Source of the DNA: a virus
DNA: 64,000 nucleotides
Virus record (IMG/VR): IMGVR_UViG_3300025450_000020
Coordinates: 18,186 to 82,185 of that record
Reading direction: 5' to 3' (one strand)
Below the pieces are notes generated by a model. It was not told where the DNA came from. It worked only from the letters and a program-made list of their open reading frames with translations, and ran no database searches. Below, one piece after another: positions 2,150 to 61,996 of the stretch. The position numbers and the translations under genes were made by a program. Each line of letters begins with the position of its first letter. Positions within the stretch are counted from its first letter, which is position 1.

Positions 2150-3189
2150 TGTCTAACGCTAGAAATATTGCTAATAATGGGGGAGTTGGATCAACATCTA
2201 ACCGTCCCGCCAATCCATATGTAGGACAAGAATATTACGATACCACAGTTAATGCAATTGTGGTTTGGAATGGAACTACTTGGGGCGGATTATTTCCAGC
2301 TTTTTATCCAGTCGTTACTGGCGGCACTATTTTTTCAGATGCAACTTATTATTACCGTGCTTTTACTTCTACTGGTACTTTATCTGTTTCTAACGTAGCT
2401 TTAGCTGCCGATGTTTTAGTAATTGCTGGTGGCGCAAGCGGTGGTTATAACATAAATCAAGCCAATGGTGGTGGCGGAGCTGGTGGTCTTAGATTATTAG
2501 CTTCTCAATCATTGCCTGTTAACACTTATACTTGTTCAGTTGGTGCGGGTGGCGCTTCGGTTTCATCAAGTCCATCTATGGGTAATAACGGAACTAACTC
2601 ATACATTAGTGCAAGCGGTTTCTCTACTATTACCGCTTCAGGTGGTGGCGCAGGTGGTTACGGAACTACCAACAACGGTTTATCTGGTGGTTCAGGCGGT
2701 GGTGCTGGTTCTGGTGGACACAGTGGCGGAGCAGGAAACACTGGTGGTTATACCCCCGTTGAAGGATATGCGGGCGGTACATCTTCAGCAGTTCAAGCTG
2801 GTGGTGGTGGTGGTGGCGCAGGCGGAGTTGGCGGCAACGGTGGTTCAGGCGGCGGTGCATACGGCGGCAACGGTGGCGTAGGTGCTGGAGGAACTGGATA
2901 CACAAATTACGCAATTCTTGACACTATAGGTGCTGCAACATCAACAGGCGTTCTTTCATCTTCGCATTATTATTATGCAGGTGGTGGCGGAGCTTCTGCT
3001 GATAGCGGTTCAACTGGTGGACTTGGCGGTGGCGGCAATGGCCCTAGCGGTTCTGTTACATCAGCAAACGCAGGTTTAACTAATACAGGCGGCGGCGGTT
3101 CTGGTGCTTTTGGTAATTCAACACCATCGGGTGCTGGCGGTTCTGGTTTAATTGTTGTTCGTTACACTAGAACTCAGGTAGGTGGATAA
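2149..3189 (+). CDS. Glycine-rich tail fibre protein (YYDTT N-terminal module)
   Basis: 346 residues, paralogue of the preceding gene at its N-terminus (SNRPANPYVGQEYYDTT). Its C-terminal half is closest to the first gene of the window: both share GGAGGLRLLASQ, SPVEGYAGG or TPVEGYAGG, and YTNYAILD, ending with IVVRY. This gene therefore combines the Y-module with the Gly-rich module otherwise found behind F-modules, which is evidence of module swapping within the array. Start and stop both overlap neighbours by one base (TAATG). Confidence 0.75.
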   Translation: MSNARNIANNGGVGSTSNRPANPYVGQEYYDTTVNAIVVWNGTTWGGLFPAFYPVVTGGTIFSDATYYYRAFTSTGTLSVSNVALAADVLVIAGGASGGYNINQANGGGGAGGLRLLASQSLPVNTYTCSVGAGGASVSSSPSMGNNGTNSYISASGFSTITASGGGAGGYGTTNNGLSGGSGGGAGSGGHSGGAGNTGGYTPVEGYAGGTSSAVQAGGGGGGAGGVGGNGGSGGGAYGGNGGVGAGGTGYTNYAILDTIGAATSTGVLSSSHYYYAGGGGASADSGSTGGLGGGGNGPSGSVTSANAGLTNTGGGGSGAFGNSTPSGAGGSGLIVVRYTRTQVGG

Positions 3190-3617
3190 TGGCTATTAAT
3201 TTTCCTTCATCTCCAACAGTAAACCAACAATATACGTATAATGGTTTAACTTGGTATTGGACTGGACAAGTTTGGAAATCTCTAGGAACTGTTCAGGGCG
3301 TACAAGGCACACAGGGTGTGCAAGGTTTTGGATATGCCCAACTTCAAGGTGTTCAAGGACTTCAGGGTTCTGCAGGATATGTTGGAACAAATGGAGCACA
3401 GGGTACACAAGGTATATCAGGATTAACTGGTAATTATCAATCAATTCAGGGATCGGGAATTTCTGTTACAGCCCGCCCAGTTATAAACTTTTTAAATGCA
3501 ACAGTAACTGATGATTCTGCCAATAACCGAACAAATGTTACAATTGCAACAGCGATAGATGGCGGAAGTTCCAATAGTACATATGGAGGAGCCATAAGCG
3601 GAGGTAATGCAATATAA
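3189..3617 (+). CDS. Collagen-like tail fibre protein
   Basis: 142 residues. The N-terminus (FPSSPTVNQQYTYNGLTWYW) resembles the short head domains of phage fibres. Residues ~35-80 contain Gly-X-Y-like repeats built from VQG, TQG and LQG, as in phage collagen-like stalks that form trimeric rods. The C-terminal part (NFLNATVTDDSANNRTNVTI) is a common phage fibre motif. Likely a trimeric spacer or fibre. Coupled to both neighbours by TAATG overlaps. Confidence 0.65.
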   Translation: MAINFPSSPTVNQQYTYNGLTWYWTGQVWKSLGTVQGVQGTQGVQGFGYAQLQGVQGLQGSAGYVGTNGAQGTQGISGLTGNYQSIQGSGISVTARPVINFLNATVTDDSANNRTNVTIATAIDGGSSNSTYGGAISGGNAI

Positions 3618-4441: not shown

Positions 4442-4472
4442 TGAATTTAAATTTTAGAAAAGGAGATAAATA

Positions 4473-4838: not shown

Positions 4839-4849
4839 AGGAGTAATTA

Positions 4850-8181: not shown

Positions 8182-8206
8182 TATAATTAAAATGGTAAAA
8201 TTAAAG

Positions 8207-8222
8207 GGCGGGAGGTAGAAAA
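8207..8222 (+). promoter_or_regulatory. Ribosome site overlapping a GGCGGGA motif
   Basis: GGCGGGAGGTAG sits before the ATG at 8223. The strong Shine-Dalgarno GGGAGGT is fused to one copy of the dispersed 7-mer GGCGGGA. TATAAT at 8182-8187 could be a -10 for this short leader. Confidence 0.45.
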
Positions 8223-11610: not shown

Positions 11611-11633
11611 CAATATGCTAAATAAACAAATAA

Positions 11634-11642
11634 TGCTATAAT
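11634..11642 (+). promoter_or_regulatory. Extended -10 promoter
   Basis: TGCTATAAT fits TGnTATAAT. It lies 24 bases before the ATG at 11667, which has a perfect AGGAGG ribosome site. Confidence 0.5.
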
Positions 11643-11666
11643 ATAAAAAGTAACAGGAGGTATAAA

Positions 11667-11900
11667 ATGTCAGATACACCAACAAAGATTATTGTTGATT
11701 GCTCTACAGGAGAACAAAAGATTGTTCCTTTGACTCCCGCCGAGATTGCAGCTAACGATCAAGCAGCAGCAGCGGCAGCTACAGCAGCTCAAGAAAAGGC
11801 AGCAGCAGATGCTGCGGCAGCAGCAGCAAAAGCAAGTGCGGTAGCAAAGCTATCTTCACTTGGACTTACAGCAGAAGAAATTGCAGCATTAACTGCATAA
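11667..11900 (+). CDS. Small alanine-rich coiled-coil protein
   Basis: 77 residues after an ACAGGAGGT ribosome site. The N-terminus (KIIVDCSTGEQKIVPLTPAE) is followed by a stretch of about 30 residues made mostly of Ala with Gln, Glu and Lys, predicted helical by composition. It ends in KLSSLGLTAEEIAALTA, a short helical hairpin that recurs at the end of small phage structural proteins. Its position between fibre genes and another small structural gene suggests a virion role; specific function unknown. Confidence 0.6.
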   Translation: MSDTPTKIIVDCSTGEQKIVPLTPAEIAANDQAAAAAATAAQEKAAADAAAAAAKASAVAKLSSLGLTAEEIAALTA

Positions 11901-11924
11901 TTTAAAATAACTAAGGAGAAATAA

Positions 11925-12317: not shown

Positions 12318-12336
12318 TAAATAAAATAATAATGTG

Positions 12337-12375: not shown

Positions 12376-12400
12376 GTAGCAAAATAACATAGGAGAATAA

Positions 12401-12607: not shown

Positions 12608-12611
12608 TTCC

Positions 12612-12633
12612 ATCCCGCCTTTTTAGGCGGGAC
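12612..12633 (+). terminator. Terminator-like hairpin built from TCCCGCC/GGCGGGA
   Basis: TCCCGCCT, loop TTTT, AGGCGGGA: an eight-pair GC-rich hairpin right after the 12607 stop. The downstream U-tract is weak (CTTTC). It contains the dispersed 7-mer in both orientations. Confidence 0.55.
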
Positions 12634-12662: not shown

Positions 12663-12668
12663 AGTCTT

Positions 12669-47762: not shown

Positions 47763-47784
47763 TTTATGTAATCACTGTCTAACT

Positions 47785-47793
47785 TGATATAAT
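47785..47793 (+). promoter_or_regulatory. Extended -10 promoter
   Basis: TGATATAAT in the 52-base gap between helicase and the next gene. It is the same 13-base string ACTTGATATAATT as the promoter at 1112. Confidence 0.5.
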
Positions 47794-47814
47794 TATCAAG
47801 AAAGATTGGTGATC

Positions 47815-48099
47815 ATGTACCCAAGAAAAATACATGACTTCTGGATGAATGGGATTATCAAAGATGATTCTATCTTTCAGAGCTCAAGGGAGAACTATGA
47901 GAGACTTTTGGTCCAGCAGATGCGAGACAAAGGTTACGTTCCTGTCCTTGACATGCAGCCTCAGTTTAATGTAAAATATAACGAGAGCAAGGATCACTAC
48001 TCTTTCAACCTTGTAATGTACGGAATTTACATTGGTAAATCCAAAGCATTAAAGTATGAAGGGTTCTCTGGTCAGAGTTTAATACCTAAAGGAAAATAA
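47815..48099 (+). CDS. Small hypothetical protein
   Basis: 94 residues from the ATG at 47815; GTG and TTG alternatives lie 6 and 9 bases upstream. Sequence MYPRKIHDFWMNGIIKDDSI, YERLLVQQMRDKGYVPVLD and HYSFNLVMYGIYIGKSKALK. Probably a mixed alpha-beta fold. Between helicase and primase, so a replication accessory is plausible; not recognised. Confidence 0.55.
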   Translation: MYPRKIHDFWMNGIIKDDSIFQSSRENYERLLVQQMRDKGYVPVLDMQPQFNVKYNESKDHYSFNLVMYGIYIGKSKALKYEGFSGQSLIPKGK

Positions 48100-49059: not shown

Positions 49060-49065
49060 TATACT
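49057..49065 (+). promoter_or_regulatory. Extended -10 promoter for SSB-like gene
   Basis: TGATATACT, with TTTGAG 15 bases upstream as a weak -35. It is followed by a small leader hairpin (AGGGC/GCCCT at 49074-49091) and AAGGAG before the ATG at 49112. Confidence 0.45.
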
Positions 49066-49111
49066 GAAGAAACAGGGCATCAAACAGCCCTTACACTAAG
49101 GAGAAATAAAT

Positions 49112-49789
49112 ATGGGTATCGTAACAGGTTTGTCAGCAATGACAAAGCAAATGGAAAACAAAGCTGCATCAGGTGATGCACAAAAGGGAAGATGGCTACA
49201 GCTTAAAGATGGCCAATCACTAAAAATCCGCTTCATGCAAGAAATTGATCCAGACTCAAAGAATTATATTCAAGAGGCTGGCTTGGCTTTCATTGCGGTA
49301 GAGCACACAAATCCAAAGGATTACAAGCGTAAGGCACTTTGCACAATTGAAGACCAGGGTCGTTGCTTCGGATGCGAACAGCATCGTCGTGACCCAAAGG
49401 CTGGTTGGAAGGGTCGTTCACGATTCTACGCAAATGTCCTTGTTGATGATGGTTCGGAAGACCCATACATCGCAATCTTTTCTCAGGGTGCAGGTCCAAA
49501 GTCTGCAACTCCAGAGATTATCAACTATGCAGGCGAGACAGGCAGTATTTCCAACTTGACTTGGAAGTTAAAGCGTACTGGCACTGCAACTGATACTAAC
49601 TACTCTATCATTCCACTTCCAACTGCAGATGTTCCTCCAGTTGATTTGGAAAAGTATGAATTGTTTGACCTCCAGAAGTCAGCAGTTCGTGATGTTCCTT
49701 ACGAGGAGCAAGAGAATTTCTACTTGGGAATCACCTCAGATTCTTCAGAAGAGTCTCTTCAATCAACATCATCAGCGGTAGAGTGGTAA
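49112..49789 (+). CDS. Single-stranded DNA-binding-like protein
   Basis: 225 residues. The opening LSAMTKQMENKAASGDAQKG then RWLQLKDGQSLKIRFMQEID matches phage ssDNA-binding proteins of the gp32-like type. A zinc-like cluster CTIEDQGRCFGCEQH follows (Cys-x8-Cys-x2-Cys-x2-His), then basic WKGRSRFYANVLV, and the acidic C-terminus SSEESLQSTSSAVEW is typical for SSBs. It would coat single strands at the fork and recruit RecA and polymerase. It has its own promoter. Confidence 0.65.
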   Translation: MGIVTGLSAMTKQMENKAASGDAQKGRWLQLKDGQSLKIRFMQEIDPDSKNYIQEAGLAFIAVEHTNPKDYKRKALCTIEDQGRCFGCEQHRRDPKAGWKGRSRFYANVLVDDGSEDPYIAIFSQGAGPKSATPEIINYAGETGSISNLTWKLKRTGTATDTNYSIIPLPTADVPPVDLEKYELFDLQKSAVRDVPYEEQENFYLGITSDSSEESLQSTSSAVEW

Positions 49790-49800
49790 GAATCTAAACA

Positions 49801-52800
49801 ATGAAATTTGCCCACCTTCACGTTCATTCGCATTACTCGCTTATGGATGGCCTCAACACGCCTCATGAGCTTCTTGAAGCTGCAAAGAAGGCTGGGCAAA
49901 AATCATTAGCAATAACTGACCATGGAACATTGTCATCTCACAGAGATATGCAAATCGCCGCTAAAGAATTAGGCATGAAGCCTATACTCGGTCTAGAAGC
50001 TTATATCTCGGCTACAGACCGTTTTGATAAAAGAGCAGTGGCAAAACGAGATGACAATACTTCCTTGTACAACCACATTATCCTTCTAGCTAAGGATGAT
50101 TTGGGATTAAAGAATTTGCAAAAGCTATCTCAGATTGCATGGACAGAAGGATACTATCACAAGCCCCGCATTGATATTGATGCACTTTGGGAGTTTGGTG
50201 ACGGTATAATTGTAGTATCAGGATGTATGAATGGTCTTATCTCTAAAGCAATTGAGCGGGGAGATAACGATAAGGCAAGAGAATATGTCAAGATGTTCAA
50301 GAACCGTTTTGGCAAAGACTTTTATATTGAAGTTCAAGCACATAATCCTGAGAGTTTAAACACAGCTCTGCTTGCATTAGCAGATGAATTTGGGGTGAAG
50401 CCAGTTGCTACGGGAGATTGTCATTTTGCAAAGAAAGAGGAGAGGGATCTGGAAGAACTCCTCCTTATATTATCAACTAAGCCCACGCAGAACAAAGATG
50501 CGGACTATACTAGTGGTCGTTCCTATAGGAATGTTATTGACCGCTTTGACCACTTATATCCTGACCGCCCAATTAGTTTCGCCGATATTAATGTTTATAT
50601 CCAGTCGTATGATGAAATCAAGGCGGATTTTGAGAATGCAGGCATTACCAGAACAGATATCTACGAGTCATCAATAGAAATTTCCGATAAGGTTGAGGCA
50701 TATGACTTTCACGAAAACCTTGACCTGCTCCCAGTACCAAAAAAGAATGCATTAAAAACACTCAAAGAAATGTGTGACAAGTCTCTAGTAGAAATGGGAT
50801 TAGACAATGAGACATACAGAGAACGGCTCCAAGAAGAACTTCAAGTCATCGCTGATAAAAATTTTGCTAGTTACTTCCTTGTTGTTGGCGATATGGTGGG
50901 TTGGGCAAAAGAAAACCAAATCATGGTTGGCCCAGGACGAGGATCCGCTGCTGGATCTTTAGTTTGTTATCTATTGGGTATTACTGATGTAGACCCAATT
51001 AAGTTTGACCTTTTGTTTTTCCGATTTATTAACCCTGAACGTAATGACTTTCCAGATATTGATACAGACTTTATGGACCGTCGTCGTGGTGAAGTAAAAG
51101 ATTATCTGAAGAAGAAGTTTAAGCACGTTGCATCTATCTCAACTTATACTTACTTTAAAGATAAGGGTGTTATTCGTGACGTAGCTCGTGCCTTCTTGGT
51201 ACCACTTGGTGAAGTAAATAAAGCCTTAAAAGGCGTTGAAACATTTGAAGAGTGGGAAGTTTCACCAAGCACTGCAGAGTTCAGAGATAAGTATCCAGAA
51301 GTTACAAAGTATGCTTCAATGTTGCGTGGTAAGATTCGTGGTAATGGTATGCATGCTGCGGGTGTTGTTGTAGCTAAAGATGACATCAGCAAGTATGTTC
51401 CAATTGAAACTCGCAAAGACCCAGATGATTCTGTATCAGGTCGTATCCCAGTAGTTGCATACGATATGGAACAAACTGCTGAACTTGGACTTATCAAGCT
51501 TGACGTACTTGGACTTAAAACTTTATCAGTTATTGATGATGCATTAAAGACGATTAAACATATCAGTAAAAAAACAATTAATCTTAAAGACATTAAACTT
51601 GATGACCCGAAAGTATATGAAATGCTTTCAAGTGGTTTTACAAAGGGCGTCTTTCAGGCAGAAGCAACTCCATATACCAATCTCCTCATGAAGATGGGCG
51701 TAAGCACATTTGAAGACCTTGCAGCATCTAACGCACTTGTTCGTCCAGGCGCTATGAATACTGTGGGTGGATCATATATTCGTCGTAAGAAAGGCGAAGA
51801 AATGGTTACTTACGCTCATCCAATCATGTATGAGTTTACGGAAAGAACATATGGTGTTATCATATACCAAGAGCAGGTTATGCAAGCCTGCGTTTATCTT
51901 GGCGGTATGACCTGGGCGGATGCAGATAAAGTCCGTAAGATTATCGGTAAGAAGAAAGATGCGAGTGAATTTGATGCTTACAAAGACCAGTTTATTCAAG
52001 GTGCGAGCAAGCATATTACAAGCGAGGATGCAAACAAATTATGGCATGACTTTGAAGCTCATGCGGGTTATTCCTTTAACCGTTCTCACGCTATTGCTTA
52101 CTCTATGCTGTCTTATTACACTGCTTGGCTTAAATGCTATTACCCTCTTGAGTTTATGTTTGCCATTCTCAAGAATGAAAAAGACAAGGATGCCAGGACG
52201 GATTATTTACTTGAGGCTAAGCGGTTGGGCATTAAAGTATTACTCCCGCATATCAACGAATCTGAGCTAGACTTCAGCATTCAGGGCAATTCAATTCGCT
52301 TTGGTTTGTCAAACATTAAGTATATTTCTGACAACATTGGTAACAAGATTATGAATCTTCGTCCATTTAAATCATACTCAGACTTTACAGAGAAGGCGGG
52401 AGTCAAGGGTAGCGGTATCAATTCAAGAGCTATAGACTCTCTTAATACAATTGGTGCTGCAGCATTTCCAGACAATCCCCGCAAGGGCACAGAGAATGAA
52501 AAGCTGTATGAGTATCTAGGCATTCCTAAATTTGATACAGGCAAGCTAAGCCCCGCTATTAAGGCTCAGGTTAATCCGCTTGAAGATTTCCTAGAAGAGG
52601 GCTGTTTCGTCCTTCTAGCCATGGTTAAATCCATTAAAAAGGGTCCTACATGGGCACGTATAGAACTTGTTGATGACACAGGTTCGGTGGGAATCTTCCA
52701 TGAGGTCAATACAAAGATTGAACCAGGAATGATGTATTTCTTCTTAGTAGGAGATAACCGTATTCACAAGTACGTAACAATTGATGAAGTTGTTGAAAAG

Positions 52801-53073
52801 ACTGACGATCCATTTGTTCAATGGCTTTACAAAGATAAACTAAAGATTGATGACGGAAAGATGCTTGTACTTGATTTTACACATTACAAGACAAAGGCAA
52901 ATAAGATGATGGCTCATATTATTTTGTCTGATGCAGACAAGAATCTTGAGCGAGTAATTGCATTTCCTAAGCTATATGCCAAAGCTCTAGGAAAGATGCA
53001 GCCAGGAAAGATTTGTGACCCCGCAATTTCCAAAATGGAAGACGGAACGTTATATGTAAAGGAGGTAGGTTAA
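49801..53073 (+). CDS. dnaE: DNA polymerase III alpha subunit (DnaE-type)
   Basis: 1090 residues. N-terminal PHP domain: HVHSHYSLMDG (7-17), ITDHGTLSSH (~38-47), TGDCHFAKK (~203), with most metal-binding His/Asp retained. Polymerase palm: PGRGSAAGS (~378-386) and PDIDTDF (~418-424) with the catalytic aspartates, then NGMHAAGVVV, MEQTAELGLIKLDVLGLKTL (~556-575). Fingers: NRSHAIAYSMLSYYTAWLKC. The C-terminal region is shorter than in bacterial DnaE. It is the phage replicative polymerase. Only a weak ribosome site precedes it. Confidence 0.9.
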   Translation: MKFAHLHVHSHYSLMDGLNTPHELLEAAKKAGQKSLAITDHGTLSSHRDMQIAAKELGMKPILGLEAYISATDRFDKRAVAKRDDNTSLYNHIILLAKDDLGLKNLQKLSQIAWTEGYYHKPRIDIDALWEFGDGIIVVSGCMNGLISKAIERGDNDKAREYVKMFKNRFGKDFYIEVQAHNPESLNTALLALADEFGVKPVATGDCHFAKKEERDLEELLLILSTKPTQNKDADYTSGRSYRNVIDRFDHLYPDRPISFADINVYIQSYDEIKADFENAGITRTDIYESSIEISDKVEAYDFHENLDLLPVPKKNALKTLKEMCDKSLVEMGLDNETYRERLQEELQVIADKNFASYFLVVGDMVGWAKENQIMVGPGRGSAAGSLVCYLLGITDVDPIKFDLLFFRFINPERNDFPDIDTDFMDRRRGEVKDYLKKKFKHVASISTYTYFKDKGVIRDVARAFLVPLGEVNKALKGVETFEEWEVSPSTAEFRDKYPEVTKYASMLRGKIRGNGMHAAGVVVAKDDISKYVPIETRKDPDDSVSGRIPVVAYDMEQTAELGLIKLDVLGLKTLSVIDDALKTIKHISKKTINLKDIKLDDPKVYEMLSSGFTKGVFQAEATPYTNLLMKMGVSTFEDLAASNALVRPGAMNTVGGSYIRRKKGEEMVTYAHPIMYEFTERTYGVIIYQEQVMQACVYLGGMTWADADKVRKIIGKKKDASEFDAYKDQFIQGASKHITSEDANKLWHDFEAHAGYSFNRSHAIAYSMLSYYTAWLKCYYPLEFMFAILKNEKDKDARTDYLLEAKRLGIKVLLPHINESELDFSIQGNSIRFGLSNIKYISDNIGNKIMNLRPFKSYSDFTEKAGVKGSGINSRAIDSLNTIGAAAFPDNPRKGTENEKLYEYLGIPKFDTGKLSPAIKAQVNPLEDFLEEGCFVLLAMVKSIKKGPTWARIELVDDTGSVGIFHEVNTKIEPGMMYFFLVGDNRIHKYVTIDEVVEKTDDPFVQWLYKDKLKIDDGKMLVLDFTHYKTKANKMMAHIILSDADKNLERVIAFPKLYAKALGKMQPGKICDPAISKMEDGTLYVKEVG

Positions 53074-53273
53074 TGGAAGATAATGATTTGTCAAATGTAA
53101 ATATATCTATTGAACAAATTCTTGCAGCTATAATAAACCATTTTGGTACTATAGAGATTACAACAGAGGAATTGTTGAGTAATTATTCAAACAAGAATCT
53201 TGCTGTAACGCAGGATCCCGAGACAGCCAAGCTTAGATTTGAGCTTGCTGATAACCAAACAGAAACCGAATAA
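53073..53273 (+). CDS. Small acidic hypothetical protein
   Basis: 66 residues, coupled to polymerase (TAATG) and preceded by a perfect AAAGGAGGT. Sequence VNISIEQILAAIINHFGTIE then TTEELLSNYSNKNLAV resembles small phage proteins with a KOW-like or helix-turn pattern. The C-terminus is acidic (ELADNQTETE). Function unknown. Confidence 0.55.
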   Translation: MEDNDLSNVNISIEQILAAIINHFGTIEITTEELLSNYSNKNLAVTQDPETAKLRFELADNQTETE

Positions 53274-53279
53274 ATAGTG

Positions 53280-53285
53280 TATAAT
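53280..53285 (+). promoter_or_regulatory. Leaderless -10 promoter for 53294
   Basis: TATAAT ends 8 bases before the ATG at 53294, and TATAAGTAT between them holds no Shine-Dalgarno, so the mRNA probably starts at or just before the ATG. Confidence 0.45.
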
Positions 53286-53293
53286 ATAAGTAT

Positions 53294-53548
53294 ATGGCTC
53301 AGTCCTACATACTTAAAGGTACGGAGAACGAGTTCCTGTTAGTAATTAGAGCAGAGGACGAAAAAGCAATCTATAACATAATAGATTTATTAGTGACCAG
53401 TCGTAATGAACAGATTAAAGAGTTAGCAATAGAGTTAGAGAAGAGTTTACATGATAACGGAAGAGATTCTAGCAAAGCTAGACCCAAAAACAAGAGCAAG
53501 ACTACAACTAGCAACAACAGTAAGCGTAGAAAAACAAAAGACGCCTAG
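53294..53548 (+). CDS. Small protein overlapping recA
   Basis: 84 residues. Residues 1-55 (QSYILKGTENEFLLVIRAED, then EKAIYNIIDLLVTSRN) form a compact alpha-beta pattern; the last ~30 are Lys/Arg/Ser-rich (GRDSSKARPKNKSKTTTSN). The last 98 bases are also the first 32 codons of recA in another frame, so the basic tail may be free to vary. It lies behind a leaderless promoter. Function unknown, perhaps a recombination accessory. Confidence 0.55.
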   Translation: MAQSYILKGTENEFLLVIRAEDEKAIYNIIDLLVTSRNEQIKELAIELEKSLHDNGRDSSKARPKNKSKTTTSNNSKRRKTKDA

Positions 53549-54449
53549 CATTGGCTTAACAATGGGACTCAAAGGCGGATTAGGCTTTGGTCGCCAAATC
53601 CTTATCTGGGGAAATAAGTCTGCTGGTAAATCTTCATTCTGCTTACAAATGATTGGTCAAGCTCAAAAAGAAGGCAAGACTTGTGCTTGGATTGATGCAG
53701 AAGCATCGTATGACCCAGCTTGGGCTGCCAGATTAGGCGTAGATTCAGAAAAGCTAATTTATTCACCCGCTAAATCTATCAATGACATGGTAGATGTTGC
53801 ACAGCAACTTATGGAGGCGGGAGTAGATATTATTGTTGTAGATTCTATCTCAGCATTACTTCCTGCCATTTACTTTGAGAAAGATAGTTCCGATCTAAAG
53901 AAATTGGAAGATACCAAGCAGATTGGTGCTGAAGCAAAGGATATGACACATGCAGTCAAAATGCTTAACTATGCAAACAAAAATACGCTACTCGTTCTTA
54001 TCTCTCAACAGAGAAACCAGTTTGGATCTATGCATGCAAGCCATATCCCAACAGGAGGAATGGCTGTTAAGTTTTTCTCCAGCACCGTTATCAAGCTCTG
54101 GGCATCAGAAGCTGATGCAAATGCTATTAAGTCTGGAATCCAAGTTGGTGACAAAATTATTGAACAAAAGGTGGGAAGGCCAGTCAACTGGATTATTGAC
54201 TACAACAAAACTGGACCAATGGGGTTATCGGGTCAGTATGACTTCTATTTTCAAGGCGATAAAGTTGGAGTTGATGCTGTCGGAGAAATCCTAGATACTG
54301 CAGAAATGATGGGTATTGTGCAAAAAGGCGGTGCTTGGTACACTGTTAATGAAGAAAGATTCCAGGGTCGTGCAAAGGCTGTAGAGTACCTTAGAGACAA
54401 CCCTAAAGTAGCGGATAAGATTAAGGAAGAGATATATGACAAGTCTTGA
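53451..54449 (+). CDS. recA: RecA-like recombinase
   Basis: 332 residues. The start at 53451 is supported by DPKTRARLQLATTVSVEK, which is typical of the helical N-terminus of phage RecA. Walker A GNKSAGKSS (54-62), WIDAEASYDPAW (~78-89), Walker B DIIVVDSISALLP (~125-137), and the L2-like region QQRNQFGSMHASHIPTGGMA. It should form filaments on ssDNA for strand exchange and recombination-dependent replication. It overlaps the previous gene by 98 bases and the next by 14. Confidence 0.85.
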   Translation: MITEEILAKLDPKTRARLQLATTVSVEKQKTPSIGLTMGLKGGLGFGRQILIWGNKSAGKSSFCLQMIGQAQKEGKTCAWIDAEASYDPAWAARLGVDSEKLIYSPAKSINDMVDVAQQLMEAGVDIIVVDSISALLPAIYFEKDSSDLKKLEDTKQIGAEAKDMTHAVKMLNYANKNTLLVLISQQRNQFGSMHASHIPTGGMAVKFFSSTVIKLWASEADANAIKSGIQVGDKIIEQKVGRPVNWIIDYNKTGPMGLSGQYDFYFQGDKVGVDAVGEILDTAEMMGIVQKGGAWYTVNEERFQGRAKAVEYLRDNPKVADKIKEEIYDKS

Positions 54450-54633
54450 AAATTTTCTTAAAGGCAATAAAAAAGTAGAGCCACCATTGCAATCAATGGA
54501 GCCAGCCAGCGGTTCTTTTGCATGCCAAAATAAAGAATGCAACGAAGTTGTTTATGAAGGTTATGTTGATAGAGCACACAATAAGTTGAAGTGGATTTGC
54601 AGTCAAGGACATGATTCAGCGGTAAGCATCTAA
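54436..54633 (+). CDS. Small zinc-finger protein
   Basis: 65 residues, GGAAGAG upstream and 14-base overlap with recA. ENFLKGNKKVEPPLQSMEPA precedes FACQNKECNEVVYEGYVDRA and WICSQGHDSAVSI, giving Cys-x4-Cys and Cys-x3-His, a plausible zinc site. It is a small companion of recA in the operon; function unknown. The stop overlaps the next start (TAATG). Confidence 0.55.
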   Translation: MTSLENFLKGNKKVEPPLQSMEPASGSFACQNKECNEVVYEGYVDRAHNKLKWICSQGHDSAVSI

Positions 54634-54941
54634 TGTCAGAGCGTGGAGAAATAAAACGTGACGGAGCTAAAGGACAGAAAAATTCTGGTCGTGGCGATTA
54701 CCAAAAGGGAGACGCTCAGTGGCATAATTTTGTGGTTGATTATAAAGAGTATGAGAAGTCAATCTCTATATCAAAAGCTATTTGGGCTAAAATTTGTACA
54801 GACACTTTTAAGGTGGATAGGAATAAGAGCCCAGTTCTCAAGCTCATACTTGGTGGAGAAGGCTCTAAAACTAGACTTGCAGTAATTGAATGGGCATTGT
54901 TAGAACAATTGATAGAGTGTTGGGAGACACATAATGATTGA
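54633..54941 (+). CDS. Hjc-like PD-(D/E)XK nuclease (Holliday junction resolvase candidate)
   Basis: 102 residues. QKNSGRGDYQKGDAQWHNFV followed by VDYKEYEKSISISKAIWAKI gives Asp27 and Asp36-x-Lys38, the D...(D/E)xK core. It continues with a helix, then PVLKLILG and RLAVIEWALLEQLIE, as in small phage Holliday-junction resolvases of the Hjc/VRR type. A recombination role is supported by its place beside recA. A RuvC-like resolvase is encoded 2.4 kb downstream. Assigned from motif pattern only. Confidence 0.55.
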   Translation: MSERGEIKRDGAKGQKNSGRGDYQKGDAQWHNFVVDYKEYEKSISISKAIWAKICTDTFKVDRNKSPVLKLILGGEGSKTRLAVIEWALLEQLIECWETHND

Positions 54942-55116
54942 AGATCAAGACTTAGACGAGTTTCAAATTTGGTTTAGTAATGGTGTAGAGCGTGGTTGGA
55001 TTACTCCACCATTTTGTGCTACTCATGATGGAATACCTTCAATTTCTGAAGAGGAAGAAGAAGAATGGGAAGCAGGCGGAGACCCATGTCAGTTTGTAGT
55101 TAGGATTCTTGAATGA
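54934..55116 (+). CDS. Small acidic protein, actinophage type
   Basis: 60 residues, 8-base overlap with the nuclease gene. Sequence FQIWFSNGVERGWITPPFCA, THDGIPSISEEEEEEWEAGG, PCQFVVRILE. The pattern W.S.PFC.THDG.P.....E.....EGGDPC matches a small conserved protein that I associate with actinobacteria and their phages. The acidic run and paired Cys suggest a metal or protein interaction; role unknown. Confidence 0.6.
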   Translation: MIEDQDLDEFQIWFSNGVERGWITPPFCATHDGIPSISEEEEEEWEAGGDPCQFVVRILE

Positions 55117-55439
55117 CAGAAAAACCAGTTATTGAATTAATCAGCGAACTAACAGAGTTCAATGATATGAAGACATATATGAGTGACCCAGACCTTGACT
55201 ATGCTCTTGACTTGATTATTAAGCTTATTGCTAAGCCTGATGTGCCTTCATCCAAAATTCCCGACCTTATTGTTAAAATGCAGGCTTTGTCTGCTAAGTT
55301 TGCAATGATGTCACGCTACTACACCACCTTTGAAAAAGGCGGGGAGAATTCTAAGAAGAAGAACGTATATTACACTGCTGAAGAAGCAATAGACAAGCTT
55401 GTTGCAGCATTGAAATATTCAATGAAAGGTAATTATTAG
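55113..55439 (+). CDS. Hypothetical helical protein
   Basis: 108 residues, ATGA overlap with the preceding gene. Helical sequence VIELISELTEFNDMKTYMSD, LDYALDLIIKLIAKPDVPSS, IPDLIVKMQALSAKFAMMSR, YTTFEKGGENSKKKNVYYTA. Similar small proteins occur in actinophage replication clusters. No catalytic motif. Function unknown. Confidence 0.55.
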   Translation: MTEKPVIELISELTEFNDMKTYMSDPDLDYALDLIIKLIAKPDVPSSKIPDLIVKMQALSAKFAMMSRYYTTFEKGGENSKKKNVYYTAEEAIDKLVAALKYSMKGNY

Positions 55440-55453
55440 AACACTTGAGTGTG

Positions 55454-55462
55454 TGATATAAT
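55454..55462 (+). promoter_or_regulatory. Leaderless extended -10 promoter for HNH gene
   Basis: TGATATAAT ends 6 bases before the ATG at 55469. No Shine-Dalgarno is present. Confidence 0.5.
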
Positions 55463-55468
55463 AAACAT

Positions 55469-56047
55469 ATGAAACCACACAACAAGCTTCCAGAACCAGA
55501 AATTGGTCAAATTTTTGAAGGTTGGACTGTTATAGAAATTGGTCAGTGGCAGTCAAAAACCCCTAACTCGTTCTATAAGTCAGAGCATTATTGTGGAAAT
55601 ACAAGAAAATTTACAGCATCTCAATTATGGTCTAAAAAATTTAAGCCTTGTAAAAAATGTGAAGCAAGGGTTGCATATAGAAAAAACCATAAAGATATAA
55701 TTTTAAACAATATTTATAGGCAATATAAATGGAGTGCCAAAAAAAGAGGTCATTCATTTAATTTATCTAAAGAGGAATTTAATAAAATTGTTTTTATGAA
55801 TTGTTCGTATTGCGGTGATGAGCCAAATCAGAAAAGAAGCATAACTGAAAAATTAAGAAGTGTTCACCATAAAGATGAATATATTTTAATTAATGGAATT
55901 GATAGAATTGATAATTCTATAGGTTATGAATTTAAAAATTGTACCCCATGTTGTTTTGTTTGTAATAAAGCTAAAAGCACCATGACTATAAAAGAATGGA
56001 ATGATATGGTTTTAAAATGGAGTAGAATGGCAAAGATAAATGGGTAG
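55469..56047 (+). CDS. HNH endonuclease (homing-type, with zinc finger)
   Basis: 192 residues. The N-terminal half has CGNTRKFTASQLWSKKFKPC followed by KKC, a zinc finger-like DNA-binding part. The C-terminal half has CSYCGDEPN, NGIDRIDNSIGYEFKNCTPC and CFVCNKAKSTMTIKEW, the Cys-framed HNH variant common in phage homing endonucleases. AT-richer and Lys/Asn/Ile-heavier than its neighbours. It has its own leaderless promoter and sits inside the recombination operon, consistent with a mobile insertion. Confidence 0.8.
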   Translation: MKPHNKLPEPEIGQIFEGWTVIEIGQWQSKTPNSFYKSEHYCGNTRKFTASQLWSKKFKPCKKCEARVAYRKNHKDIILNNIYRQYKWSAKKRGHSFNLSKEEFNKIVFMNCSYCGDEPNQKRSITEKLRSVHHKDEYILINGIDRIDNSIGYEFKNCTPCCFVCNKAKSTMTIKEWNDMVLKWSRMAKING

Positions 56048-56825
56048 AGAGCTAATAGCAAACCTAAAGTTTCAAAAGATGGTTGTGCCAGATGGTTTTG
56101 ATCCAATTAAATTTGCAGAAATGTATGAGGAGGCAGTATTAAGTGAAAAAAGACCAAATGAATTTACCCAAAAGAAAACTTTTGCTCCTAGTTCTGTTGG
56201 CTATGGTAACGGTAACTGTCCTAGATATTGGTTCATTGCTTTTACTGGTGCTGAGTTTGAAAATGAAACCGATGCTATGGGCGTCTCTAATATGGATAAT
56301 GGTACGTATGTCCATGATCGGATACAGAAAAACTTTGCTAAAACAGCAGTCTTCAAAGCAAATGAAGTTGAAATTACCCACGATGATCCGCCAATTAGAG
56401 GATTTGCAGACACAATTATAGAATGGAATGGCAAAGAAGTAATTGGTGAAGTAAAATCTGCCAAGCAAGAAATTTTTGATATCAGACAAGCAGAGATGCA
56501 AGGTCTTCCATATCATAAAGTTCAGCTTTTGCATTACATGAAAATCCGTGGGGCAGAGCAAGGTTTCTTTTTTTATGAGAATAAAAATGACAACAGTTTT
56601 CTTGTTATACCAATTAATATGGATGAAAAGAATACAGACTTGATTAATGGAGTTTGGGATTGGATGCGTAAAGTATATGCTGCCTATGAAGCTGGAACTT
56701 TGCCAGAAAGAACATTTACTAAATCGCAGTGGGCATGTAAGGGATGCCCTGTCAAGAAAGTTTGCTGGGCAGATAAAAAAGATTTAGGTGAAGTTTATAT
56801 AGAACCTTTGGTGCTTGAAAAATGA
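56040..56825 (+). CDS. Cas4/RecB-like PD-(D/E)XK exonuclease with Fe-S cluster
   Basis: 261 residues. Four cysteines place an Fe-S cluster: Cys60 (YGNGNCPRYW) and three near 233-242 (CKGCPVKKVCW). The nuclease core is RGFADTIIEW and GEVKSAKQ (Glu137-x-Lys139), followed by YHKVQLLHYM. This is the AddB/Cas4 layout. Phage Cas4-like proteins act as end-processing exonucleases in recombination; no Cas1 or Cas2 is present, so a CRISPR role is not supported. Its start overlaps the HNH stop. Confidence 0.75.
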   Translation: MGRELIANLKFQKMVVPDGFDPIKFAEMYEEAVLSEKRPNEFTQKKTFAPSSVGYGNGNCPRYWFIAFTGAEFENETDAMGVSNMDNGTYVHDRIQKNFAKTAVFKANEVEITHDDPPIRGFADTIIEWNGKEVIGEVKSAKQEIFDIRQAEMQGLPYHKVQLLHYMKIRGAEQGFFFYENKNDNSFLVIPINMDEKNTDLINGVWDWMRKVYAAYEAGTLPERTFTKSQWACKGCPVKKVCWADKKDLGEVYIEPLVLEK

Positions 56826-57109
56826 TATGTGCTTACGAAGAGTGCGGTAAAGATTTTACACCTAAAACACACAATCAAAAATATTGTTCTGATGAATGCT
56901 GTCGTACTGCAACTAATGCAAAATTAAAGCAAGCATATTATGACAAAAAAGCTAGGCTAGCGGGCAAGCAAAGAATTTGTAAATCAAAAGGCTGTAACGT
57001 AATCCTTAGTAGATATAATGAAACTAATATATGTGATAAGTGCGTAAGTGCTAAAAAAGAAGAAGAGCGAAAACAGCTTGTAGAAATGGTAAAACGTGTC
57101 TCTGGCTAA
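56822..57109 (+). CDS. Zinc-finger protein
   Basis: 95 residues, ATGA overlap. CAYEECGKDFTPKTHNQKYC, CSDECCR is a typical small DNA-binding finger of phage proteins (CxxxCG..F.....NQKYCS..C). A second cluster CKSKGCNVILSRYNETNICD plus KC follows, then a charged helix (KKEEERKQLVEMVKRV). Two zinc knuckles with a helical tail suggest DNA binding. It is followed by the RuvC-like gene with a 14-base overlap. Confidence 0.65.
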   Translation: MICAYEECGKDFTPKTHNQKYCSDECCRTATNAKLKQAYYDKKARLAGKQRICKSKGCNVILSRYNETNICDKCVSAKKEEERKQLVEMVKRVSG

Positions 57110-57653
57110 ATTAGTTCGTCCAACTGCACATAAAGTTTTGGGGATAGATGCCAGCACAAATAGCATCGCCTTTTGCTTAATGTCTGAAAAGAAACCTGTT
57201 AAATGGGGAGAAATCACATTTGAAGGTTCTGATGTCTATGAAAGAATACTTGACGCAAAACGTAAGATGAAAGCTTTTAAAAACGAACTTGACACTGATT
57301 TTGTTGTAATAGAAGCTGCCATTTCTGTAAGATCAGTTGCAACGGGAATGAAGATGGCATACGTATTCGGTGCTATAATGGGAGAGTTACTTAGTGATAA
57401 TGTTCAGGTTGTTGAAGTTCATCCCATAACCTGGCAATCTTACTTAGGCAACAAAAATTTTACAAAAGCTGAAAAGCAGGCGGTTAAAGATGAATTTCCA
57501 GGAAAGTCTGAAAACTGGTACAAGGCAAAAATCAGAGACATTAGAAAGTCTAGGACGATTGACTTTGCGAGAACATTGGGCGTTGACACTGAAAATGATA
57601 ATGTCGCTGATGCGGCGGGGATAGCATGGTATGCAGTTAATGAAGTTGTGTGA
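57096..57653 (+). CDS. RuvC-like Holliday junction resolvase
   Basis: 185 residues from a GTG start. RNase H fold with catalytic acids Asp18 (VLGIDASTNS), Glu near 73 (FVVIEAAIS) and an Asp pair near 168-172 (NDNVADAAGIAWYA). HPITWQSYLGN and the GKSENWYKAKIRDIRK helix match phage RuvC-like resolvases. It should cut four-way junctions and branched DNA before packaging. Encoded in the same operon as the Cas4-like and Hjc-like nucleases. Confidence 0.8.
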   Translation: MSLAKLVRPTAHKVLGIDASTNSIAFCLMSEKKPVKWGEITFEGSDVYERILDAKRKMKAFKNELDTDFVVIEAAISVRSVATGMKMAYVFGAIMGELLSDNVQVVEVHPITWQSYLGNKNFTKAEKQAVKDEFPGKSENWYKAKIRDIRKSRTIDFARTLGVDTENDNVADAAGIAWYAVNEVV

Positions 57654-57662
57654 GGAGGTATA

Positions 57663-57836
57663 ATGGCTAAAAGTACAAAACTTTGGGAGAGCAAAGAGTG
57701 GGTAATGAAAAGATATGTTACCGAAAAGAAAACTGTTCTTCAAATGGCTATGGAAGCTAAATGCTCTCATATGACAATTCAGCGGGCGTTAGAAAGATTT
57801 GATTTGATTAAGAAACCTAGAAAGTGGACTAAGTAG
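57663..57836 (+). CDS. Small helix-turn-helix protein
   Basis: 57 residues, behind a perfect GAGGAGGT. WESKEWVMKRYVTEKKTVLQ then MAMEAKCSHMTIQRALERFD ends in a basic KKPRKWTK. The helices around KTVLQMAMEAKCS and MTIQRALERF form a helix-turn-helix typical of small DNA-binding or transposase-like N-termini. The stop overlaps the GTG of the next gene (TAGTG). Possible regulator of the glycosylation genes (inferred). Confidence 0.6.
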   Translation: MAKSTKLWESKEWVMKRYVTEKKTVLQMAMEAKCSHMTIQRALERFDLIKKPRKWTK

Positions 57837-58489: not shown

Positions 58490-59139
58490 TAGGATTACTA
58501 CCAGCTTCGGGTAGTGCTTCAAGACTTGGCGGGATTCCAAAGTTTTGTTTACCATTAACAGATAATCAAAACATGCTTCAATGGCATGTGGAGCAAATGT
58601 TAAAGGTATGCGATATTGTTAAAATATCTACAAGAAAAACATGGCTTCCAATTGTAAACCAAATGGACCTTCCACCCGAAGCTGTTGTTTATGAGATTGA
58701 GCCATCAACAATGTCTGATGCATTGTTAAAGATGATGGTAAACCCAGAATCTAAATATATAATTGGTATGCCTGATACCTATATGCCAGGATCAGATGGA
58801 GAATTCTATAGACAGTTAGCTGAATCAAAAGCAGATGTCACTTTGGCAGCTTTTGATTGTCACAAAGATTTAATGGGGCGGGTAGGTCAAATTAAGTTTA
58901 ATGAATTTGGTAATGTTATTGATGCTCTTGACAAGGATAAAGATTGTGAGTATCCTTATATGTGGGGAGCAATGTCAATACAAAATGTTTATATTGACGA
59001 AGAATTGCCAAATCCAGGTGTGCAGATAATGGACTGGGTTAATGAAGGAAAAGATGTAAAGGCGGTAGTCGCCAAAGGTAAGTACCTAGACATTGGTACT
59101 GTAAACGGTCTTAAAATGTTATATAGAGAGGAACTTTAG
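58477..59139 (+). CDS. Nucleotidyltransferase (nucleotide-sugar synthesis)
   Basis: 220 residues from a TTG. The signature LLPASGSASRLGGIPKFCLP is the variant GxGxRL...PK motif of NTP_transferase enzymes that couple NTP to sugar-1-phosphate. GMPDTYMPG (around residue 98) carries the metal-binding Asp, and IGTVNGLKML is the usual end. Shorter than glucose-1-phosphate thymidylyltransferase (~290). It probably makes the activated sugar for the overlapping glycosyltransferase (inferred). Confidence 0.7.
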   Translation: MAAIIGLLPASGSASRLGGIPKFCLPLTDNQNMLQWHVEQMLKVCDIVKISTRKTWLPIVNQMDLPPEAVVYEIEPSTMSDALLKMMVNPESKYIIGMPDTYMPGSDGEFYRQLAESKADVTLAAFDCHKDLMGRVGQIKFNEFGNVIDALDKDKDCEYPYMWGAMSIQNVYIDEELPNPGVQIMDWVNEGKDVKAVVAKGKYLDIGTVNGLKMLYREEL

Positions 59140-59453: not shown

Positions 59454-59459
59454 TTAAGT

Positions 59460-59642
59460 ATGCCAAAATATGACTACACTTGTATTGAGTGTGATAGAAC
59501 AGAGGAAATAACTAGATCATTTTCTGATCCAGAAGTAATCCCGCCATGTCCAAGCTGTGGTTATAATATGACAAGAGTTTATACCCCTGCGGGGATTCAG
59601 TTCAAAGGATCAGGTTTCTATAAAACCGATAATGGCAGATAA
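59460..59642 (+). CDS. FmdB-like zinc ribbon protein
   Basis: 60 residues. PKYDYTCIECDRTEEITRSF, then PPCPSCGYNMTRVYTPAGIQ and FKGSGFYKTDNGR: an exact FmdB-type pattern with Cys-x2-Cys twice and a GSGFYKTD end. Such proteins are small regulatory or structural zinc ribbons of unknown specific role, frequent in actinophages. It overlaps the terminase small subunit by 11 bases and may be translated with it. Confidence 0.75.
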   Translation: MPKYDYTCIECDRTEEITRSFSDPEVIPPCPSCGYNMTRVYTPAGIQFKGSGFYKTDNGR

Positions 59643-60162
59643 CGAGTTAGAAGTAGCTGGCAAATTTGACCAGATGAATAAAGTTGTTGAGGAGTTGCTA
59701 AAAGGTAGCACTCCTGCTTCAATTGCACGTACACTTGATTTGACTCGTGTTCAAGTTGATAGTCATATTCAAACTTGGAAAGAACTTGTTCAAGATAACA
59801 GTGCTATCAAAGCCCGTGCTAGAGAAGCTTTGGCGGGAGCAGATGAGCATTACAATATGCTTATTAAAGAAGCATGGCGTACAGTAGAGCAAGCAGATAT
59901 GCAAGATGCATTAAATGTAAAAGCCCAATCTCTTAAACTTATTGCTGATATTGAAGCTAAAAGAATTGATATGTTAAACAAGGCGGGAGTCTTGGAGAAC
60001 AATGATATGGCTGATCAAATTCTAGAATCAGAAAGAAAGCAAGAAGTCCTTATCAGTATTCTTAGAGATGTAACTTCATCTTGTGAACATTGCAAGTGGG
60101 AAGTATCAAGAAGATTGTCAGAAGTCACTGGGCAAGTAGAGGCAGTTGTAATAAGTGACTGA
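59632..60162 (+). CDS. terS: Terminase small subunit
   Basis: 176 residues. N-terminal helix-turn-helix LLKGSTPASIARTLDLTRVQ followed by VDSHIQTWKELV binds the packaging site. A long central helical region (EHYNMLIKEAWRTVEQADMQ, NVKAQSLKLIADIEAKRIDM) would form the oligomer ring. The C-terminus has CEHCKW, a CxxC pair that is unusual for this protein. It lies directly upstream of the large subunit with an 8-base overlap. Confidence 0.75.
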   Translation: MADNELEVAGKFDQMNKVVEELLKGSTPASIARTLDLTRVQVDSHIQTWKELVQDNSAIKARAREALAGADEHYNMLIKEAWRTVEQADMQDALNVKAQSLKLIADIEAKRIDMLNKAGVLENNDMADQILESERKQEVLISILRDVTSSCEHCKWEVSRRLSEVTGQVEAVVISD

Positions 60163-61996
60163 TTTTAATGTATTTTTAGATGCATTACAAGGTGATGAAT
60201 TTGATGAAACTCCAGCAACTTTGGAGCAATTTGTAACAGATAAAAAGTATTTGGGCCTTCCGCCATTGTCTGAATTACAATATACAATGATTAAAGCATC
60301 CACTCAAATCTACAAACGTGAAACATTACACAATATATATGGTGAAGTTGAAGGCGAAAAGATTTGGAAACAAACATGTAATGAAGTAATCCTGCAGCTG
60401 GGCAAGGGTTCTGGAAAAGACTATACATCTACTATTGCTTGTGCATATATGGTGCATTTGCTTTTATGTCTTGCAGATCCCGCCAGATATTTTGGTAAGC
60501 CACCAGGCGATGCTATTGATATTATTAACATTGCTATTAACGCTATTCAGGCTAACCGAGTTTTCTTTAAAGGATTTAATCAGCGTATTGAAAAGTCACC
60601 GTGGTTTCAGGGAAGATATGTCGCTAAAGCAAACATGGTTGAGTTTGATAAATCAGTTACAGTTCACTCAGGTCACTCAGAGCGTGAAGCATGGGAAGGT
60701 TATAACGTTCTTGTAGTTATTCTTGATGAGATCTCAGGATTTGAATTGCAATCAACTTCAGGTCATGAGCAAGCTAAAACTGCATCATCAATTTATAAGA
60801 TGTATCGTGCATCTGTCAACTCTCGTTTTCCAGACTTTGGAAAAGTAATTCTACTTTCATTCCCACGTTTTAAAAATGACTATATTCAGCAAAGATACAA
60901 CGAAGTTGTGGCGGAAAAGGAAACTGTTATTCGTCATAATAAATTTAAAGTAGATCCCGATCTTCCTGATGGAACTGATGGTAATGAATTTGAAATTGAA
61001 TGGGAAGAAGACCATATTGTTTCTTATAAAGTACCTAGGGTATATGCATTAAAGAGACCAACTTGGGATATTAACCCGACCCGTAAGATTGAAGATTTTA
61101 CAATTGACTTTTATACAGATCCAACAGATGCATTGTCTCGTTTTGCATGTATGCCACCAGACGCAACGGATGCATTCTTTAAAAATCGCTTAGTAATTGA
61201 AAAAGCATTTAGCAATCCTAAATTAAATGTTGATTCATATGGAAGATTTGATGATGATTTTGTTCCAAAAGAAGATGTTAAGTATTTTATGCATGTTGAC
61301 TTGGCACAAAAACATGACCATTGTGCAGTAGCATTAGCCCACGTTGACGGCTGGGTAACCATGAAGATTGGTGAAAATTTTAAGCAAGCAGCACCTAGAA
61401 TTGTAGTTGATGCAGTCAGATATTGGACACCAACAGCTTCTAAATCAGTTGATTTTACAGAAGTAAAAGATTATATTACAAGTGTGCGGGATAAAGGATT
61501 TAATCTTAAACTTGTTACATTTGACCGCTGGAACTCACACGATATGATGCAACAACTTGGTGTTCATGGTATTAAAACAGAAATTTTATCTGTAGCAAAA
61601 AAACATTATGAAGATATGTCTCTTACTTTAACTGAAGAGAGATTGCATGGTCCACATATTCAATTGTTGATTGATGAATTGCTTCAGCTACGTATTATGA
61701 AGGACAAGGTAGACCACCCTAGAAAAGGATCTAAAGACCTCTCAGACGCCGTTTGTGGAGCTGTATTCAATGCTATATCCTTGACACCACCAGATCAAGA
61801 TAAAGAAGTAGAAATCTATACTTATTCTGGTGTATTTGCGGGGGAATTGGCACAATTAAAGGCGGAATCGGATGCAAGAATGAAGAATACAATCCGTATG
61901 CCTGAAAGAAAAACAATGCCACAAGATATTAGAGATTTCTTTGATGATGAAGACGGGGAATACAAAGATATAGTTGACAACTTCAGAATACTATAG
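60155..61996 (+). CDS. terL: Terminase large subunit
   Basis: 613 residues, GTG start. ATPase: Walker A GKGSGKDYT (83-91), Walker B VVILDEISG (~187-195) with the catalytic Glu. RNase H-type nuclease: MHVDLAQKHDHCAVAL (~379-393), LVTFDRWNS (~453) and SKDLSDAVCGAVFNAI (~530-545) supply the three acidic residues. It drives ATP-dependent packaging and cuts concatemers. Slightly longer than typical (~500-550). Terminase genes lie after replication genes and far from portal in this window. Confidence 0.9.
   Translation: MTDFNVFLDALQGDEFDETPATLEQFVTDKKYLGLPPLSELQYTMIKASTQIYKRETLHNIYGEVEGEKIWKQTCNEVILQLGKGSGKDYTSTIACAYMVHLLLCLADPARYFGKPPGDAIDIINIAINAIQANRVFFKGFNQRIEKSPWFQGRYVAKANMVEFDKSVTVHSGHSEREAWEGYNVLVVILDEISGFELQSTSGHEQAKTASSIYKMYRASVNSRFPDFGKVILLSFPRFKNDYIQQRYNEVVAEKETVIRHNKFKVDPDLPDGTDGNEFEIEWEEDHIVSYKVPRVYALKRPTWDINPTRKIEDFTIDFYTDPTDALSRFACMPPDATDAFFKNRLVIEKAFSNPKLNVDSYGRFDDDFVPKEDVKYFMHVDLAQKHDHCAVALAHVDGWVTMKIGENFKQAAPRIVVDAVRYWTPTASKSVDFTEVKDYITSVRDKGFNLKLVTFDRWNSHDMMQQLGVHGIKTEILSVAKKHYEDMSLTLTEERLHGPHIQLLIDELLQLRIMKDKVDHPRKGSKDLSDAVCGAVFNAISLTPPDQDKEVEIYTYSGVFAGELAQLKAESDARMKNTIRMPERKTMPQDIRDFFDDEDGEYKDIVDNFRIL

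What the first reader, a model, noticed from the sequence alone, without database searches (positions are those of the whole stretch)
2205..60484. A 7-mer, GGCGGGA, is strongly over-represented and biased to one strand
I count 20 GGCGGGA on + and 7 on -, where about 1-1.5 per strand are expected at ~38-40% GC. The copies are written in different codon phases: Ala-Gly (GCG GGA), Gly-Gly (GGC GGG), Pro-Ala (CCC GCC) and Pro-Pro (CCG CCA). GCG, GGG and CCC are otherwise uncommon here. Protein needs therefore do not explain it. A Chi-like recombination or anti-degradation signal for the host RecBCD/AddAB-type nuclease is one hypothesis; a packaging, segregation or modification site is another.
Basis: partly seen in the sequence, partly recalled or inferred. 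Interest (0 to 1): 0.78.

Follow-up and report, generated by a model that had tools for sequence, protein, structure and literature searches.

The report
Phage-family DNA word with lineage dialects
A seven-letter DNA word, GGCGGGA, is scattered about twenty times more often than chance through a freshwater virus of actinobacteria and its relatives, on both strands and mostly inside genes; sister virus lineages use different versions of the word and the likely hosts do not share it, so it looks like a signal that belongs to the virus family and whose reader is still unknown.

Summary
The count is correct: 20 GGCGGGA on + and 7 on - in the window, 30/12 in the 82,185-bp record. Against a codon shuffle that keeps every protein and the codon usage, it is the most over-represented 7-mer of the genome (37 in genes, about 2 expected). 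It is also first in eight related records tested, second in one and weak in one; ten pooled records give 227 against 11. The strand bias is not a signal: GGCGGGA is used at 8.1% of synonymous opportunities in sense and 7.7% in antisense. Sites turn over between relatives while density stays high. A host Chi is not supported: two freshwater acI genomes show no excess, and no sampled actinomycete shows a phage-like one. Related lineages carry other words of the same shape (GGCGGGT, GCCGGGT, CCGGGTA, GCCGGTA). Separately, these phages lack CCGG completely (0 in 948 kb).

The parts
2205..2211 (-). GGCGGGA copy, antisense in gene 2149-3189 (CCC GCC)
8207..8213 (+). GGCGGGA copy, intergenic, just before the start of gene 8223-8864
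11735..11741 (-). GGCGGGA copy, antisense in a small ORF
12613..12619 (-). GGCGGGA copy, left arm of an intergenic stem (TCCCGCC-TTTTTA-GGCGGGA)
12626..12632 (+). GGCGGGA copy, right arm of the same stem
13131..13137 (+). GGCGGGA copy, sense, GGC GGG A
13794..13800 (+). GGCGGGA copy, sense, GGC GGG A
18001..18007 (+). GGCGGGA copy, sense, GCG GGA
26506..26512 (+). GGCGGGA copy, sense, in the tape-measure gene 25973-31318
29341..29347 (+). GGCGGGA copy, sense, in the tape-measure gene
31144..31150 (+). GGCGGGA copy, sense, in the tape-measure gene
31335..31341 (+). GGCGGGA copy, sense, GCG GGA
31698..31704 (-). GGCGGGA copy, antisense, CCC GCC
33099..33105 (+). GGCGGGA copy, sense, GGC GGG A
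36392..36398 (+). GGCGGGA copy, sense, GCG GGA
38125..38131 (-). GGCGGGA copy, antisense, CCC GCC
38782..38788 (+). GGCGGGA copy, sense, GCG GGA
43380..43386 (+). GGCGGGA copy, sense, GCG GGA
45669..45675 (+). GGCGGGA copy, sense, GGC GGG A
48765..48771 (+). GGCGGGA copy, sense, in the DnaG-like primase gene 48100-49059
52395..52401 (+). GGCGGGA copy, sense, in the DnaE polymerase gene 49801-53073
53816..53822 (+). GGCGGGA copy, sense, in the RecA-like gene 53451-54449
58528..58534 (+). GGCGGGA copy, sense, GGC GGG A
59539..59545 (-). GGCGGGA copy, antisense, CCG CCA
59832..59838 (+). GGCGGGA copy, sense, in gene 59632-60162 upstream of the large terminase
59982..59988 (+). GGCGGGA copy, sense, in gene 59632-60162
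60478..60484 (-). GGCGGGA copy, antisense, in the large terminase gene 60155-61996
46536..57836 (+). Its link to the word is inferred, not shown.

Best explanation
GGCGGGA is a dispersed recognition word of this freshwater actinophage lineage. Shown: its density is kept far above chance over the whole genome, in both orientations, mainly inside genes; individual copies come and go between relatives; sister lineages of the same phage family keep different words of the same shape (G/C, G/C, C, G, G, then G or T, then A or T). Inferred: a sequence-specific DNA-binding protein encoded by the phage, most likely in the conserved replication/recombination block, reads the word. A copy within a kilobase or two of any point on the DNA would do the same job whatever its direction, for example marking the phage DNA as self for its own Cas4/RecB-like nuclease and RecA system, which is Chi-like in function but not in reader or polarity.
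For: Top 7-mer against a codon shuffle and first in 9, second in 1, of 11 records including this one. Pooled over ten records: 167 vs 9.4 sense and 60 vs 1.8 antisense, with a graded fall-off around the word (strict CGGG core, end base A > G > T > C), as a protein's preference would give. Orientation-neutral use, 8.1% vs 7.7% of opportunities. Turnover: 24% of aligned copies kept; among positions with the same amino acids 48% kept against 24.5% for equally GC-rich words. Dialects: GCCGGTA 137 copies and 39% of sense opportunities in G340; GGCGGGT 59 coding copies in Annadreamy; CCGGGTA in G341, broadly following the DnaE tree. Same isolation strain S. griseus ATCC 10137 but different words: GGCGGGT 65 copies in Annadreamy and 4-9 in NootNoot, Wofford and Daubenski. 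No excess in acI genomes nor in the 297 genomes compared with the reversed control.
Against: No reader protein was identified, and no gene was shown to vary with the dialect. The host is inferred (WhiB gene in relatives, Stanwilliamsviridae kin, freshwater source), not known. Some close relatives carry little excess: G034 3 vs 0.7 and rank about 320, several DnaE-flanking loci 0-3 copies. The BillNye signal is weak, and in Mildred21 the enriched words peak towards both genome ends. Part of the intergenic excess sits in hairpins (11 of 29).
Confidence: 0.45

Rival explanations
1. It is the Chi site of the true host, an actinobacterium not sampled here, and the phage keeps it to tame the host's RecBCD, AddAB or AdnAB nuclease.
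For: Short, G-rich and non-palindromic like known Chi words. Lambdoid phages keep host Chi above chance, O/E 2.3-4.8 (PMC3784561). Host not established.
Against: No excess in two acI genomes; no phage-like excess in 297 actinomycete genomes by the cruder reversed-word control; phages of one isolation strain carry different words; no polarity beyond coding opportunity.
Confidence: 0.12
2. It is a binding site for a phage protein that organises, packages, modifies or regulates the DNA (nucleoid-like protein, terminase helper, methylase or glycosylase), with no link to recombination.
For: Orientation-neutral, genome-wide and graded in sequence like a binding preference. The phage encodes glycosyltransferases and small helix-turn-helix proteins.
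Against: No such protein is tied to the word; no DNA methyltransferase was noticed among the proteins examined; copies are not concentrated at gene starts or at one end in the freshwater records.
Confidence: 0.22
3. By-product of another force: restriction-site purging (the genomes lack CCGG and nearly lack TCGA and CGCG) or context-dependent mutation pushes GC-rich stretches into the few allowed words, GGCGGGA among them.
For: CCGG is 0 in 948 kb of relatives and 0 in the window; GCGG and CGGG, the core of the word, are one step from CCGG; G034 shows a weaker excess of the sub-words.
Against: A shuffle that nearly keeps the CCGG purge still gives only 10.0+-2.6 against 37. Lineages with other purged words (GATC, AGCT) still have a CGG-type word, some containing CCGG itself. 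Sites are kept about twice as often as GC-rich controls.
Confidence: 0.15
4. Codon-pair or translation effect: the word is favoured as mRNA or as a codon pair.
For: The commonest single form is GCG GGA in sense (16 of 36 coding copies).
Against: All phases and antisense are enriched, with antisense the higher ratio, and use of opportunities is equal in both orientations.
Confidence: 0.03

Closest known systems
Chi sites of RecBCD/AddAB (E. coli GCTGGTGG and kin), as kept by lambdoid phages (PMC3784561)
   Same: Short, G-rich, non-palindromic word scattered over the genome, mostly inside genes, more frequent than chance in phages.
   Different: Far stronger excess (about 17-20 times against 2.3-4.8; 0.5 per kb against 0.2), no polarity beyond coding opportunity, not over-represented in the likely hosts, and lineage dialects within one phage family.
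DNA uptake sequence dialects of Neisseriaceae and Pasteurellaceae (own knowledge)
   Same: Very high density, orientation-neutral, some copies paired in terminator-like hairpins, related lineages use diverged dialects.
   Different: Here in a phage, 7-8 bases instead of 9-12, and no link to natural transformation known.
Stoperators of mycobacteriophage L5-like phages (own knowledge)
   Same: Repeated phage-specific binding words spread over an actinophage genome.
   Different: Stoperators are about 13 bp, mostly intergenic and oriented with transcription; here 225 of 254 copies are in genes and orientation is neutral.
KOPS/SRS polar motifs of FtsK and SpoIIIE (own knowledge)
   Same: Short G-rich words over-represented genome-wide.
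   Different: Those are strictly polar along the replichore; this word is not.

Membership tests
Host Chi site | Over-represented in the host chromosome | tested here: not met
   acI LanE-43 18 vs 20.9 and IMCC19121 18 vs 18.2 by codon shuffle; 297 Actinomycetia genomes never above about 1.8 times the reversed control. Host itself unknown.
Host Chi site | Polarity along the DNA beyond coding bias | tested here: not met
   8.1% sense vs 7.7% antisense of opportunities; in minus-strand genes 11/53 vs 17/67.
Host Chi site | Recognised by RecBCD/AddAB/AdnAB and changes the nuclease | not testable with these tools
   Needs biochemistry or phage genetics.
Host Chi site | Short, non-palindromic, G-rich word, scattered, mostly in genes | tested here: met
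Stoperator / phage repressor operator | Mainly intergenic and oriented with transcription | tested here: not met
   225 of 254 copies in genes; orientation neutral.
DNA uptake sequence | High density, orientation-neutral, dialects between related lineages | tested here: met
   resemblance of pattern only.
DNA uptake sequence | Read by a competence receptor (ComP or equivalent) of the organism | not tested
   No competence gene searched for; it is a phage.
KOPS/SRS | Strict polarity from origin to terminus | tested here: not met

The most novel reading that the evidence does not exclude
A large actinophage family carries its own genome-wide DNA 'address word', read by a phage-encoded protein, whose sequence drifts into lineage dialects (GGCGGGA, GGCGGGT, GCCGGGT, CCGGGTA, GCCGGTA) independently of the host: a phage-specific, orientation-free counterpart of Chi that marks or processes self DNA, possibly paired with the complete purging of a lineage-specific 4-bp palindrome (CCGG, GATC or AGCT).
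Probability: 0.3. Interest if true: 0.85.

Novelty: new variant of a known kind. Interest (0 to 1): 0.66.

Why it matters
Dispersed signal words such as Chi and uptake sequences are known from bacteria, and phages are known to borrow the host's Chi. A word that belongs to the phage family itself, is not shared with the likely host, has up to 39% of its possible synonymous sites filled in one lineage and shifts in dialect along the phage tree would point to an unknown phage-encoded reader and an unrecognised constraint on phage genomes. Isolated Streptomyces members of the family make it testable at the bench.

Tried and rejected
Codon usage, protein needs and local base composition as the cause: rejected by four shuffles. 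Strand bias as a polarity signal: rejected. Repeats or gene duplications: flanks of copies share nothing beyond the word. Terminator hairpins: explain 11 of 29 intergenic and 6 of 225 coding copies only. Even spacing: mostly random, slightly even in two records and clustered in one. acI candidate Chi words (AGCGGTT/AAGCGGTT in LanE-43) do not match the phage word, and only mild excesses of them occur in the phages. Absence of the recombination block in G034 as the reason for its weak signal: not informative, the contig ends just after DnaE. Literature searches found no report of the word or the dialects. No structure prediction was run.
Full report
What is there. The window has 20 GGCGGGA on + and 7 on -, exactly as reported. 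It is bases 18186-82185 of an 82,185-bp virus record that has 30 and 12 copies, against 4 and 4 for the word read backwards. Nearly all window genes point one way. The record belongs with the Stanwilliamsviridae type of actinophage: its DnaE is 57% identical to that of Streptomyces phage BillNye, its gene order matches BillNye and Coruscant, and four relatives carry WhiB. Near-identical and related contigs (82-100% in the portal protein) are IMG/VR records which I judge from their identifiers and low GC to be freshwater, many from bog lakes. The host is unknown; freshwater actinobacteria such as the acI group (phages of which have been isolated, PMC10202952) are my inference.

Is it more than chance. 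A synonymous codon shuffle over all called genes gives 1.8 sense and 0.3 antisense copies, where 24 and 13 are seen; of all 7-mers it has the largest excess. A per-gene shuffle and shuffles that keep one or two bases of context on each side of every codon give 3.7, 3.0 and 10.0 copies in all against 37. The last one keeps most of the sub-words and so part of the signal itself. The test holds in relatives: GGCGGGA is the first 7-mer in G024, G022, G033, G027, G013, G030, G014 and G012 and second in G032, but only 3 vs 0.7 in G034. Ten records pooled give 167 vs 9.4 in sense and 60 vs 1.8 in antisense. Other phages serve as a control: 39 loci of WhiB-bearing phages or proviruses (6-20 kb), phage T7 and phiC31 show no word with a comparable ratio on both strands at similar counts, apart from the family described under 'noticed'.

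Anatomy of the word. The core CGGG tolerates hardly any change, the first two bases prefer G but allow A and T, and the last base ranks A, G, T, C. Neighbours with one mismatch are enriched in proportion, like a binding preference. Flanking bases show no clear preference. About 89% of copies are inside genes (225 of 254 in ten records); eleven of 29 intergenic copies are arms of hairpins, such as 12613-12632 in the window.

Strand. When each place in each protein that could carry the word by synonymous choice is counted, 167 of 2073 sense and 60 of 779 antisense places carry it, 8.1% and 7.7%. In genes on the minus strand the two orientations are used alike too (11/53 and 17/67). The bias is thus the coding strand's doing, and the word acts, if it acts, without direction.

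Evolution. Across all pairs of the ten records, 24% of aligned copies are kept. Where the amino acids are the same, 48% are kept, against 24.5% for equally GC-rich words (for G000 alone). Sites are therefore weakly held and mostly replaced, while density stays high.

Host. Two acI genomes have no excess by the same shuffle (18 vs 20.9 and 18 vs 18.2). Among 297 genomes of the class the word never exceeds about 1.8 times the reversed control; this control is cruder than the shuffle. Streptomyces phages BillNye and Coruscant lack the GGCGGGA excess.

Dialects. A wider sample around the DnaE gene shows that other branches of the family keep other words of the same shape. G340 has GCCGGTA and SSCGGTAG (137 GCCGGTA copies in 114.8 kb, 39% of sense opportunities used); G339 GGCCGGTA; G342 GCCGGTA; G341 GCCGGGTA; G349 GCCGGGTG; Annadreamy CGGCGGGT. 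The words follow the DnaE tree broadly. A host enzyme would not set different words in phages of one host, although natural hosts may differ from isolation hosts. In Mildred21 the enriched words pile up at both genome ends and may be another matter.

How it most likely works. Shown: a lineage-specific word is kept at high density, without direction, with turnover. Inferred: a phage-encoded protein reads it, and what counts is that a copy lies near any point of the DNA. The conserved block with DnaB, DnaG, SSB, DnaE, RecA, a Holliday junction resolvase, a Cas4/RecB-like nuclease, RuvC and a small helix-turn-helix protein is the natural place to look. A Chi-like use, in which the phage's own nuclease or recombinase treats DNA with the word as self, fits the density and the independence from the host. 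A nucleoid, packaging or modification protein fits almost as well. Primase sites or polar motors fit less well because direction does not matter.

A possible link. All 80 related freshwater loci, 948 kb, contain no CCGG at all, and the window has 0 CCGG, 2 CGCG and 7 TCGA; acI genomes have CCGG in plenty. Streptomyces members lack GATC entirely, others AGCT. Such complete, lineage-wide purging suggests a nuclease that is always present, perhaps the phage's own. It does not by itself produce the GGCGGGA excess: a shuffle that nearly keeps the purge gives 10 copies, not 37, and lineages with other purged words still have CGG-type words. Whether the purge and the word are two sides of one self-recognition system is the most interesting open question.

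Limits. Genes were called mechanically, records are related to each other and some are fragments, the host is not known, and no reader has been identified.

Noticed in passing
window 1-64000; L010-L089: CCGG is completely absent (0 in the window, 0 in 948 kb of 80 related loci; 97 expected in the record's genes), and TCGA (7 in the window) and CGCG (2) nearly so. Streptomyces members of the family lack GATC completely, other lineages AGCT.
   Followed up: partly
L176, L177, L178 (records G361, G362): A different actinophage lineage over-represents YGCGGTGA (44 GCGGTGA in 129.5 kb vs 9 for the reversed word). In the 20-kb stretch L178 all 16 copies lie on one DNA strand although the genes point both ways, a truly polar, Chi-like pattern.
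   Followed up: partly
L191-L210 (acI strain LanE-43): AAGCGGTT is enriched about 3.3 times (50 vs 15) with a strand preference that seems to switch along the chromosome, a possible Chi word of this host; not seen in IMCC19121.
   Followed up: partly
window 59-11610: A row of tail-fibre-like genes: several with glycine-rich domains (source of a separate GGTGGCGG excess), one with a major tropism determinant N-terminal domain (3617-4441), three of one PHROG family.
   Followed up: no
window 62327-63818: Cluster of nine tRNA genes in 1.5 kb.
   Followed up: no
L009 1-7300 (record bases left of the window): GGCGGGA is denser here (9 copies in the first 5.6 kb), in a stretch of few and partly minus-strand genes; minus-strand genes of relatives use 23% of opportunities against 7% elsewhere.
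   Followed up: partly
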